The notes below the pieces were generated by a model. That model had not been told where the DNA came from, ran no database searches, and saw only the letters and a program-made list of their open reading frames with translations. The translations under genes were made by a program, and so were the position numbers. Shown one piece after another: positions 17,119 to 20,580 of a DNA stretch of 38,920 nt. Positions within the stretch are counted from its first letter, which is position 1. The number at the start of each line of letters is the position of its first letter. Origin of the DNA: Desulfurellaceae bacterium (GTDB taxonomy: Bacteria > Desulfobacterota > Binatia > Bin18); assembly GCA_021296095.1 (NCBI GenBank), contig JAGWBB010000015.1, positions 28,426 through 67,345 on the forward strand, read 5' to 3'.

Positions 17119-17634
17119 TTAAAATGGCAGTTCAATCTCGACCACTCTGCCGTGCCCGACTTGCGATCCGACCCAGGCTGCGAGGCGTGCTCTCAAGTAC
17201 TTACTGCGGAACATCTCATGGATTCGTTCCGTTTCTGTTCGATCATCAATGAACCGAGCCGTGCCACTGAAAGCAAGATCTCCGATCTTCAAGCCTATCT
17301 GATTATTTTTCTTCAGGTTTCGATACCAGGCGGTTTTGCCGTCATTCCCGGCTTGGATGTAAAAGCGGTCGTGTTCATAAATGAACCAGATCGGGATCAT
17401 GCGCGGCTTGCCGCTTTTTCGGCCAATCGTCGTGATCTCGACAATTGACTCCGAGGCGCGCGCCTCAAGGGCTGGCCGGCTGGGACTGGTCTCCTGGGCC
17501 GAACTCGGCACCGCCCAGCCGGCCAGCATGAGGGCTAGGCCGCAGCATAGCAAGAACCGGTGTTGCCGGGCCGACAAGGTGAACGATGATACCCACCTCA
17601 TCAAGAAGAGATCATTGTTCACCTTGCGTGTCAT
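17119..17634 (-). CDS. Exported split-barrel (deazaflavin-type nitroreductase/PNPOx-like) protein
   Basis: A 171-aa protein. The mature part has the motif EITTIGRKSGKPRMIPIWF, then DRFYIQAG, TAWYRNLKKNNQIGLKIGD and FSGTARFID, typical of the F420/FMN split-beta-barrel superfamily (Ddn/DUF385 or PNPOx-like). A signal peptide is visible (RFLLCCGLALMLAGWAVPSS then AQ), which is unusual for this mostly cytoplasmic superfamily. ATG 17634 has an excellent AGGAGGAAG RBS. Directly after the first codons, residues 4-19 (KVNNDLFLMRWVSSFT) are encoded by repeat copy R4, so the signal sequence carries an inserted extension. Translation could also restart at the ATG inside the repeat, which would give a more normal signal peptide. 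Cofactor and substrate are unknown. Confidence 0.75.
   Translation of the reverse strand: MTRKVNNDLFLMRWVSSFTLSARQHRFLLCCGLALMLAGWAVPSSAQETSPSRPALEARASESIVEITTIGRKSGKPRMIPIWFIYEHDRFYIQAGNDGKTAWYRNLKKNNQIGLKIGDLAFSGTARFIDDRTETERIHEMFRSKYLRARLAAWVGSQVGHGRVVEIELPF
17578..17623 (+). repeat. Palindromic repeat copy R4, at the start of an exported-protein gene
   Basis: The best-preserved copy: arms GGTGAACGATGAT and ATCATTGTTCACC pair along 13 bp with one G-T type mismatch (15 bp if flanking AA/TT are counted), around CACCTCATCAAGAAGAG. It is in frame with the minus-strand gene, beginning at codon 4. Confidence 0.85.
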
Positions 17635-17795
17635 GGCTTCCTCCTGTCAGGCGCATCTGCCAAGCCGGGCCGTCGCCCGATCTCCCCATATTGCCGTTCT
17701 GGTCTGCTGACACAATCCCACCGGGCGATTTAGTTCCCAAAAGACAGAGAGTGTGGTAGCCTTTGGCGACCTTATTTCCCAGAGGAGGAATCCGC

Positions 17796-18134
17796 ATGGC
17801 TACCCAGTATTACTTTCACATCGCTAATGAGGCCATTGAGGTGCAGACCGGTGCGCACGCCTCGCCCAATATCACGATTTCCATGAAGGAGAGTGATTAT
17901 CTGGATATGATAAACGGAAAATTGAACGGCCAGATGGCCTTTATGAGCGGCAAGCTCAAGATTACGGGAGATATGGGGCTGGCGATGCGCCTGCAAGGGC
18001 TGTTCACGGCCCGCGGCTCGGATGATCCCGAGGTCACCTCGATCCAGCAGGTGATTGATGGTTCAGCCGAAAGCTTCAACAAGGCGGGTGCAAAAGGCCT
18101 GGATGCGGTTTTTCAGTTCGACCTGAGCGACTGA
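17796..18134 (+). CDS. SCP2 sterol-binding-like protein, apparently circularly permuted
   Basis: A 112-aa protein from ATG 17796, with AGAGGAGGA just upstream and an in-frame stop (TAG 17757) before it, so the N-terminus is real. Residues 1-70 ([40 protein letters not shown]) match the second two-thirds of the SCP2 lipid-binding domain. Residues 77-112 ([32 protein letters not shown]) match the first third of that domain, which normally comes before. The order is therefore swapped while one complete domain is kept. SCP2 domains bind sterols or fatty acyl-CoA. It may derive from a tandem SCP2 gene trimmed at both ends. It lies 26 nt before anmK on the same strand. Confidence 0.8.
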
Positions 18135-18160: not shown

Positions 18161-19345
18161 ATGCCGACCCACACCCTGATTGGCCTGATGTCCGGCACCT
18201 CGCACGACGGGGTTGACGCCGTGCTGGTCGATATCACCTTTGCCCGCCACCGTTTGCAGACGCACCAGCGTACGTTTCGCGCGTTTCCGTATACCCGCCC
18301 GGTTCGTGAGCGTTTATTGCGGCTCAGTCAGGGCGCTGCGGTGCCGGCCGCTGAGGTCGCCCAGGTCAATGTGCTGTTGGGTGAGCTGTTTGCCAAAGCC
18401 GCCCTCAAGCTGTGCCAGGCGGCCGGCCTTTCGTGTGAGCGGGTGACGGCGATCGGTTCGCACGGCCATACGATTTACCATCAACCCCGCCAGCGACCGG
18501 GCCCCGGCTCCACCTTGCAGATCGCTGAGCCGGCCGTTATTGCCGCCCGGACGGGTATCACGACGGTGGCCGATTTTCGGCCCGCGGATGTGGCCATGGG
18601 CGGGGAAGGCGCTCCTCTCGTCCCGTATGTCCACTACGCCTTGTTTCATCGGCCCCGGCGGTCGGTCGCCGTCCACAATATCGGCGGGATCGCCAACCTG
18701 AGCTATCTGCCCGCCCAGCACGGGCTTGACGGCGTCCTGGCCTTTGATACCGGCCCCGGCAATATGGTCATTGACGGGGTCGTTCAGGCGGTCAGCCAAG
18801 GCAAAAAGCTGTACGACCGCGGGGGGCGTCTGGCCCGTCGGGGCCAAGTCCACCAGCCCTTACTGGCCGAACTCTTGCGCCATCCGTATTTTCGACGCCG
18901 TCCGCCCAAATCGACCGGCCGCGAGGAGTTTGGTGAGCCGTATATCCGCGATTTTCTCAGCCGAGCATCGCGGCTGAGCGCCGAGGATCAGGTTGCCACG
19001 GCCACGGCCCTGACGGTCGAAAGCATGGCCCACGCCTACCGTAGGTTTGTGTGCCCGCAGGGTGGGCTGGATGAGATTATGCTGACCGGCGGCGGAAGCC
19101 TCAACCCGGTGCTGGGTGAGTGGCTGGCCCGGGCCCTGCCCCAGGTCCAGATCCGCAGCCTGGAAGACCTCGGCTTTGAGAGTCAGGCGCTTGAAGCGCT
19201 GGCCTTCGCGGTACTGGCCTACGCCACGCTGCACGGCATGCCGTCAAATGTACTCGGGGCAACCGGCGCCCGGGCACCGGTCGTCCTGGGCAAAGTGGTG
19301 CCGGGACGCAACTATCGCACCACCCGGCTCCAAAGTGGACGATGA
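18161..19345 (+). CDS. anmK: Anhydro-N-acetylmuramic acid kinase
   Basis: A 394-aa sugar kinase of the ASKHA fold that opens 1,6-anhydroMurNAc and phosphorylates it during peptidoglycan recycling. Family motifs are LIGLMSGTSHDGVDAVLVDI at the N-terminus, IGSHGHTIYHQP, VADFRPADVAMGGEGAPLVP, HNIGGIANLSYLP, FDTGPGNMVIDGV and the adenosine motif MLTGGGSLNPVL. The length is slightly above the usual 370. The last three residues and stop (SGR, AGT GGA CGA TGA) come from repeat copy R5, so the natural C-terminus may have been replaced. Start ATG 18161 has only a weak upstream purine run. Confidence 0.94.
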   Translation: MPTHTLIGLMSGTSHDGVDAVLVDITFARHRLQTHQRTFRAFPYTRPVRERLLRLSQGAAVPAAEVAQVNVLLGELFAKAALKLCQAAGLSCERVTAIGSHGHTIYHQPRQRPGPGSTLQIAEPAVIAARTGITTVADFRPADVAMGGEGAPLVPYVHYALFHRPRRSVAVHNIGGIANLSYLPAQHGLDGVLAFDTGPGNMVIDGVVQAVSQGKKLYDRGGRLARRGQVHQPLLAELLRHPYFRRRPPKSTGREEFGEPYIRDFLSRASRLSAEDQVATATALTVESMAHAYRRFVCPQGGLDEIMLTGGGSLNPVLGEWLARALPQVQIRSLEDLGFESQALEALAFAVLAYATLHGMPSNVLGATGARAPVVLGKVVPGRNYRTTRLQSGR

Positions 19346-19458: not shown

Positions 19459-20580
19459 ATGCCGAAACGTGTCGTTATCATTCCCGGCGATGATGCTGCC
19501 CCGGAGGCCATGGCGCCGACGCTCGACCTGCTGAAGAGTTTGGCCCTGGATATCGAGTTCACCGAATTCCCCATAGGACAAGACGGGGTCAAGCAGTACG
19601 GTTCGCGACGGGATTTTCATCAGGCTTTGTGCCGAGCGATTGATCAGTCTGACACAACCCTGTTCGGGTCGACAAACGGCACGACCGGTGGGATCAGTTA
19701 TCTGCGCTGGGGCAAGCAGACCTATGCCAACGTGCGTCCGACCCGCTGGCTGCCCGGTTTCCAGAGTCCCTTGAAACAGCCCGAGGGCATAGATTTGGTC
19801 ATCGTGCGCGAAAACCTCGAAGACCTGTATATGGGCATTGAGGGAGACCTCGGTGTGCTGTCGGCCCTGCCCGAGACGAGTGTGACCAGCTATTTGACCA
19901 AGAAACCCCTGGATACGACGCCCGTCGGCAAATTCGCCATCAAGGTGATCACCGTCCAGGCCACCCAGCGGGTCGTCCGCTTTGCCTGCGAGCTGGCCCG
20001 CAAACGCAAGGCCCGGGGTGGCCGGGGGCTCGTCACCTGCACCTGCAAGTACAATATGCTGCGGAGCAGCGATGGCCTGTTTCGGCAGGTCGCCGAAGAA
20101 ACGGCCAAAGCCTACCCCGATATCGAGTATAACCAGTATATTGTTGACGATTTTGCCCACCGTCTGGTGGCAAACCCGAGTCAGTTTGACGTTGTGGTGA
20201 TGCCGAATCTATACGGTGACCTGCTCTCGGACGCGGCGGCCGGCACGATTGGCGGTCTGGGGCTGGCGCCCAGCGGCTGCTACGGCGAGGACTACGCCTA
20301 TTTCGAGTCCGCCCACGGCACAGCCCCGGATATTGCCGGCCGCAATATCATTAATCCGACTGCAACCCTGCTGTCGGCCGGCCTGATGTTGGAATATCTT
20401 GGCTGGCAGGACGTGGCGGACCGTCTCGAAGCGGCCATCGCCCGCGTCTATGCCGAGGGGCAGGTTCTGACCCCCGACCAGAGCGGCTCGTCCTCAACCA
20501 CCGACTTTTGTCGGGCGGTCAAAGACGCCGTTCTCGATAGCGAGAGGCAGCCCGTGCGGACAACACCGGCGCGTCAGTGA
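19459..20580 (+). CDS. Isocitrate/isopropylmalate dehydrogenase family protein
   Basis: A 373-aa beta-decarboxylating dehydrogenase. The family is shown by VVIIPGDDAAPEAM at the start, LVIVRENLEDLYMGIEGDL, the Asp-rich metal site FDVVVMPNLYGDLLSDAAAG, and the NAD-binding loop FESAHGTAPDIAGRNIINPT. The typical substrate-contact segment ANLRPVR.YP appears as ANVRPTRWLPGFQSPL, so substrate choice (isocitrate, isopropylmalate, homoisocitrate, tartrate) is uncertain. Absence of leu genes nearby gives no help. RBS AGAGGAGGG precedes ATG 19459. It is on the same strand as anmK but separated by a hairpin. Confidence 0.9.
   Translation: MPKRVVIIPGDDAAPEAMAPTLDLLKSLALDIEFTEFPIGQDGVKQYGSRRDFHQALCRAIDQSDTTLFGSTNGTTGGISYLRWGKQTYANVRPTRWLPGFQSPLKQPEGIDLVIVRENLEDLYMGIEGDLGVLSALPETSVTSYLTKKPLDTTPVGKFAIKVITVQATQRVVRFACELARKRKARGGRGLVTCTCKYNMLRSSDGLFRQVAEETAKAYPDIEYNQYIVDDFAHRLVANPSQFDVVVMPNLYGDLLSDAAAGTIGGLGLAPSGCYGEDYAYFESAHGTAPDIAGRNIINPTATLLSAGLMLEYLGWQDVADRLEAAIARVYAEGQVLTPDQSGSSSTTDFCRAVKDAVLDSERQPVRTTPARQ

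What the first reader, a model, noticed from the sequence alone, without database searches (positions are those of the whole stretch)
17796..18134. Circularly permuted SCP2 domain in a stand-alone 112-aa protein
The segment order is C-terminal two-thirds of SCP2 (ending [19 protein letters not shown]) followed by the N-terminal third ([20 protein letters not shown]). The total length equals one domain. A strong RBS and an upstream in-frame stop show the ORF is complete. A permutation of a lipid-binding fold could change the tunnel opening; it may have arisen from a tandem SCP2 gene by loss of both ends. I am not aware of a described permuted SCP2.
Basis: partly seen in the sequence, partly recalled or inferred. 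Interest (0 to 1): 0.75.

Follow-up and report, generated by a model that had tools for sequence, protein, structure and literature searches.

The report
Circularly permuted SCP2 lipid-carrier protein
A small bacterial relative of the sterol carrier proteins has its front end moved to its back, so that it should fold into the same lipid-holding shape from a reshuffled chain, and this rearranged version is fixed in all 16 genomes held of one order of Candidatus Binatota.

Summary
The 112-aa ORF at 17796-18134 (+) is one complete SCP2 domain in circularly permuted order: residues 1-70 match the C-terminal two-thirds of SCP2, residues 83-111 its N-terminal helix and first strand. Rotating the sequence in silico raises the Pfam SCP2 score from 73 to 87 bits, and the score against a Binatia SCP2 profile by 38-51 bits. 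The last 42 residues alone score 29.6 bits; the best of 2000 shuffles scores 6.7.

It is not an assembly error. All 16 held genomes of the order (7 genera, two of them single-contig chromosomes) carry it, with the same start, ribosome-binding site and end, under purifying selection. None of the other 83 hit-bearing genomes of the class shows it. A tree makes it one derived clade inside canonical Binatia SCP2s.

AlphaFold2 folds it confidently (pLDDT 91.7, pTM 0.83). Its secondary-structure elements match a canonical control in length, rotated by two elements. The cut lies in the beta1-beta2 turn; a variable linker of about 12 residues joins the old termini. Lipid binding is inferred from homology, and the tandem-duplication origin was not observed. 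No described permuted SCP2 was found in the papers library.

The parts
17796..18134 (+). Gene of the circularly permuted SCP2 protein, 112 aa plus TGA stop
17796..18005 (+). Segment A, residues 1-70: canonical SCP2 from strand beta2 to the C-terminal helix
   Evidence: Pfam SCP2 residues 3-70 to profile 33-100; elements E3-10 to H60-69
18006..18041 (+). Linker, residues 71-82: joins the old C-terminus to the old N-terminus; variable in sequence, one-residue indel among relatives
   Evidence: Alignment A1; pLDDT about 81 for residues 71-80
18042..18131 (+). Segment B, residues 83-112: canonical N-terminal helix alpha1 and strand beta1
   Evidence: 29.6 bits to canonical profile 5-36; H83-93 and E103-111
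17783..17788 (+). AGGAGG ribosome-binding site; an AGGAGG-type site precedes the start in all 15 complete relatives
17757..17759 (+). In-frame TAG stop upstream of the start
17119..17634 (-). Neighbour, divergent: F420H2-dependent quinone reductase-like protein; next to the gene throughout the order where the contig allows
18161..19345 (+). Neighbour, downstream: anmK, present in only part of the order
19459..20580 (+). Neighbour, downstream: isocitrate/isopropylmalate dehydrogenase family gene, co-directional with the SCP2 gene in all members examined

Best explanation
The gene encodes a complete, stand-alone SCP2 domain that was circularly permuted once, in the ancestor of one order of Candidatus Binatota. 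The chain now begins just after the beta1-beta2 turn of canonical SCP2 (GDGGGK in relatives) and ends just before it. The old C-terminal helix is joined to the old N-terminal helix by a variable linker of about 12 residues. The chain is expected to close into the ordinary SCP2 alpha/beta fold, with helix alpha1 and strand beta1 back in their usual places and the hydrophobic cavity kept. It then most likely works as a small soluble carrier of a fatty-acyl, isoprenoid or similar lipid, as its canonical Binatia orthologues presumably do. Shown: segment order, conservation, single origin, purifying selection, predicted fold elements. Inferred: lipid binding and ligand, placement of the moved segment in the fold, and origin by in-frame tandem duplication followed by loss of both ends.
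For: Rotation gains in Pfam and in a Binatia profile. 16 of 16 genomes of the order, 7 genera, with conserved start, ribosome-binding site and end. dN/dS about 0.13 and 0.16 for the two segments. One derived clade next to canonical Binataceae SCP2s; identities of both segments to relatives rise and fall together. AlphaFold2 pLDDT 91.7, pTM 0.83, with element lengths identical to a canonical control after rotation. In 9 of 16 genomes it is the only SCP2 match. Ten of eleven mappable cavity positions are hydrophobic.
Against: Rotation does not raise the phmmer score against human SCP2 (50.8 before, 50.3 after), although the matched stretch grows. No tandem intermediate in Binatia. No functional data, and gene neighbours do not point to lipid transfer.
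Confidence: 0.87

Rival explanations
1. The protein is a domain-swapped dimer or oligomer: each C-terminal segment completes the sheet of a neighbouring chain rather than its own.
For: The linker is variable and probably flexible, so the C-terminal segment could in principle reach a neighbour; no experimental structure exists.
Against: The monomer is predicted with pTM 0.83 and linker pLDDT about 81; all members keep the one-domain length.
Confidence: 0.08
2. A truncated SCP2 gene that lacks its N-terminal third and carries an unrelated or decaying C-terminal tail.
For: Pfam alone reports only profile 33-100, and residues 71-112 alone match nothing in Pfam.
Against: The tail scores 29.6 bits to the canonical N-terminus against at most 6.7 in 2000 shuffles, is conserved in 16 genomes, is under purifying selection and is predicted as the matching helix and strand.
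Confidence: 0.02
3. An assembly or frameshift artefact of a tandem SCP2 gene.
For: Tandem SCP2 domains exist in the wider phylum, and public assemblies can collapse repeats.
Against: Same gene in 16 independent genomes, two of them single-contig chromosomes; no second copy of either segment nearby in any frame.
Confidence: 0.01

Closest known systems
Canonical stand-alone SCP2 proteins of Binataceae (for example L045, L018)
   Same: About 65-73% identical in the long segment and 44-54% in the short one; same elements, same length, stand-alone gene.
   Different: Canonical order with an uncut GDGGGK turn between beta1 and beta2; different gene neighbours.
SCP2 / nonspecific lipid-transfer protein (PF02036; human and rabbit SCP-2, MFE-2 SCP-2L domain)
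   Same: Residues 1-77 superpose on SCP2 structures; cavity positions stay hydrophobic.
   Different: Linear order rotated; here the last and first helices are covalently linked.
Tandem SCP2 proteins of the wider phylum (L112-L115)
   Same: They contain the same A-linker-B junction with linkers of similar length.
   Different: Two or three whole canonical domains in long multidomain proteins, not one permuted domain; not the closest relatives by sequence.
Natural circular permutations such as saposin/swaposin (PMC3320104)
   Same: Same kind of rearrangement and same expected evolutionary route.
   Different: A different fold; here no surviving intermediate was found.

Membership tests
SCP2 (PF02036) | Match to the family profile above the curated cut-off | tested here: met
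   73.1 bits native, 87.3 rotated; cut-off 21.3
SCP2 (PF02036) | All secondary-structure elements of the domain present | tested here: met
   Nine elements with lengths identical to the canonical control
SCP2 (PF02036) | Canonical linear order alpha1-beta1-beta2 to C-terminal helix | tested here: not met
   alpha1-beta1 lie at the C-terminus; hence filed as a permuted variant that descends from within the family, not as an ordinary member
SCP2 (PF02036) | Hydrophobic ligand cavity | tested here: inconclusive
   10 of 11 mappable HaSCP-2 cavity positions hydrophobic, by sequence only and for segment A only
SCP2 (PF02036) | Binds or transfers lipids | not testable with these tools
   Needs purified protein
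UbiT (NF047962) | Score above the NCBIfam cut-off | tested here: not met
   20.7 bits, cut-off 46.9
Alkyl sulfatase C-terminal domain (PF14864) | Score above the Pfam cut-off, within an alkyl sulfatase | tested here: not met
   24.2 bits, cut-off 27; stand-alone 112-aa protein
Circularly permuted proteins (general kind) | Both segments homologous to one single-domain family, in swapped order, each present once, total length of one domain | tested here: met

The most novel reading that the evidence does not exclude
The permutation is functional rather than neutral. In HaSCP-2 one tunnel opening is surrounded by helices alpha1, alpha2, alpha3 and alpha5 (PMC4674756). Tying the last helix to the first with a short linker may tether that helix and gate the opening, while the cut beta1-beta2 turn frees another edge. 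The order would then have a lipid carrier with altered ligand choice or release.
Probability: 0.2. Interest if true: 0.72.

Novelty: new variant of a known kind. Interest (0 to 1): 0.58.

Why it matters
It appears to be an undescribed natural circular permutation of the SCP2 lipid-binding fold. It is unusually clean: one origin, fixed in an order, intact canonical sisters at high identity, and no other SCP2 match in 9 of 16 genomes. That makes it a natural experiment on which chain ends matter for the SCP2 tunnel. It also warns that annotation by linear profiles reports such proteins as N-terminally truncated.

Tried and rejected
A truncated gene or unrelated tail was rejected. A second copy of the N-terminal segment upstream, or a frameshifted tandem, was rejected: tblastn found no further significant copy. 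Apparent read-through matches past the stop in G022, G091 and G355 were examined as possible tandem remnants and look like chance: canonical proteins followed by unrelated sequence. Long matches in G128, G162, G359 and G362 are ordinary tandem SCP2 domains in larger proteins. Structural comparison by Foldseek and VIA-align could not test the swapped part, because the alignments follow chain order. UbiT and alkyl sulfatase assignments fell below cut-offs. Gene context gave no clear pathway: the neighbours are not found next to canonical SCP2 genes elsewhere, apart from weak or distant matches. No sigma-70 or terminator consensus site and no Rfam match. Literature searches for SCP2 with circular permutation returned no papers.

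Full report
What is there. The ORF at 17796-18134 (+) encodes 112 aa. AGGAGG lies at 17783-17788 and an in-frame TAG at 17757-17759. Pfam SCP2 (PF02036) matches residues 3-70 to profile positions 33-100 with 73.1 bits (cut-off 21.3). When the last 42 residues are moved to the front, the match becomes profile 11-100 with 87.3 bits.

Is it more than chance? An HMM built from ten canonical-order SCP2 proteins (alignment A2) was scored against every rotation of seven permuted proteins. In all seven the best rotation begins at residue 73, gaining 38-51 bits; five canonical controls are best unrotated or within 0.1 bit at a shift of 1-2 residues. Residues 71-112 alone score 29.6 bits to profile 5-36, against at most 6.7 in 2000 shuffles. 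Shuffling the tail inside the rotated protein gives at most 125.3 bits, against 150.8 for the true one.

Is it real biology? The same protein occurs in 16 of 16 held genomes of the family, from 7 genera; this family is all that is held of the order. Fifteen copies are complete and one is cut by a contig end. Two lie on single-contig chromosomes (OX638322.1, OY282457.1). All complete members start MA-x-Q after an AGGAGG-type site and end QFDL plus one or two residues. Median dN/dS among unsaturated pairs is 0.13 for segment A and 0.16 for segment B, so the moved segment is under purifying selection too. tblastn found no further significant copy of either segment in these loci. In 9 of the 16 genomes it is the only SCP2 match; the others also carry divergent SCP2 genes, and the three read in full (L116, L117, L119) are in canonical order.

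Where did it come from? In the class, 99 of 148 genomes have a strong match to the permuted profile. The 16 genomes of this family are the only ones with an uninterrupted match across the junction. Nearly all others end near position 70-85, usually at or just past a stop; the one longer match reads through a stop and was checked as canonical. A draw of 395 genomes from the phylum gave no other stand-alone permuted protein. In the loci read in full, relatives outside the family have the short segment before the long one wherever it could be recognised. A tree of 92 sequences, with permuted proteins rotated for alignment, places the permuted forms in one clade (100/99), joined with canonical Binataceae SCP2s (97/85) inside canonical diversity; with 107 columns, deeper forks are weak. 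Identity of the two segments to canonical relatives rises and falls together (Spearman 0.73). Hence one gene was most likely permuted once, and the canonical order is ancestral. The likely route is in-frame tandem duplication and loss of both ends (general model: PMC3320104). Tandem SCP2 domains with linkers of similar length do exist in the wider phylum (L112-L115), but no intermediate was seen in Binatia. The route is an inference.

Fold. AlphaFold2 on 13 permuted sequences gives pLDDT 91.7 and pTM 0.83, with elements E3-10 E13-18 E26-31 H32-39 H45-50 E55-58 H60-69 H83-93 E103-111. The canonical control (10 sequences; pLDDT 88.2, pTM 0.80) gives H8-18 E28-36 E41-48 E51-56 E64-69 H70-77 H83-88 E93-96 H98-107. 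The lengths are identical after moving the first two elements to the end. The moved segment has block pLDDT of 91-96. Foldseek finds SCP2 structures for both, but for example 67 columns (TMq 0.55 to 1c44) for the permuted model against about 105 columns (TMq up to about 0.8) for the control, as expected of an aligner that follows chain order. VIA-align superposes residues 1-77 on residues 44-120 of the human SCP-2L domain at Z about 7.4.

How it probably works. The cut falls in the beta1-beta2 turn (GDGGGK in relatives), where a break should be cheap. The old termini are joined by a variable linker, residues 71-82. Ten of eleven mappable cavity-lining positions of HaSCP-2 are hydrophobic here (alignment, mapped by hand; positions from PMC4674756), so a lipid cavity is likely kept. 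I infer a cytosolic carrier of a fatty-acyl or isoprenoid-type lipid; the ligand is unknown. One HaSCP-2 tunnel opening is surrounded by alpha1, alpha2, alpha3 and alpha5. The linker joins the helices equivalent to the last and the first, so it probably runs near that opening. Whether this changes ligand exchange is open. The context (divergent F420H2-dependent quinone reductase-like gene; downstream anmK in some members, then an isocitrate/isopropylmalate dehydrogenase gene) is conserved within the family but not shared with canonical SCP2 genes. It does not name a pathway.

Novelty. No paper in the held library contains SCP2, SCP-2 or sterol carrier protein together with a circular-permutation term, in the combinations tried. 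All solved SCP2 structures matched by sequence cover one contiguous part of this protein. The library is open-access only, and the collection scan depends on short peptides of this query, so other permuted SCP2s elsewhere are not excluded. I rate it a new variant of a known kind.

Noticed in passing
L122 (G046:C163:4500-7500): A canonical Binatia SCP2 gene lies inside a direct tandem repeat of about 1 kb (period 1007 bp, 94-100% identical over about 1000 bases): a recent tandem gene duplication or an assembly artefact; if real, the first step of permutation by duplication.
   Followed up: partly
L112, L113, L114, L115: Two or three tandem SCP2 domains in long proteins of the wider phylum; in L115 three follow an AMP-binding acyl-CoA ligase-like part (domain call by eye).
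   Followed up: partly
L116, L117, L119: Some genera of the same order also carry a divergent canonical-order SCP2 paralogue that forms its own long-branched clade in the tree.
   Followed up: partly
window 18161-19345 (+): anmK sits between the permuted SCP2 gene and the dehydrogenase gene in the window's genus and one other genus, but gave no match there in L039-L042 and L070, where the dehydrogenase follows the SCP2 gene directly.
   Followed up: no
window 17119-17634 (-): The divergent F420H2-dependent quinone reductase-like protein has an N-terminal hydrophobic, signal-peptide-like stretch (by eye), which would put it outside the cytosol.
   Followed up: no
L042 (CAMBFS010000039.1) and L061 (CAMBZJ010000001.1): Public records titled Klebsiella pneumoniae MAG carry Binatia-type SCP2 genes, and L042 also the order's gene neighbourhood: the records look mislabelled.
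   Followed up: no
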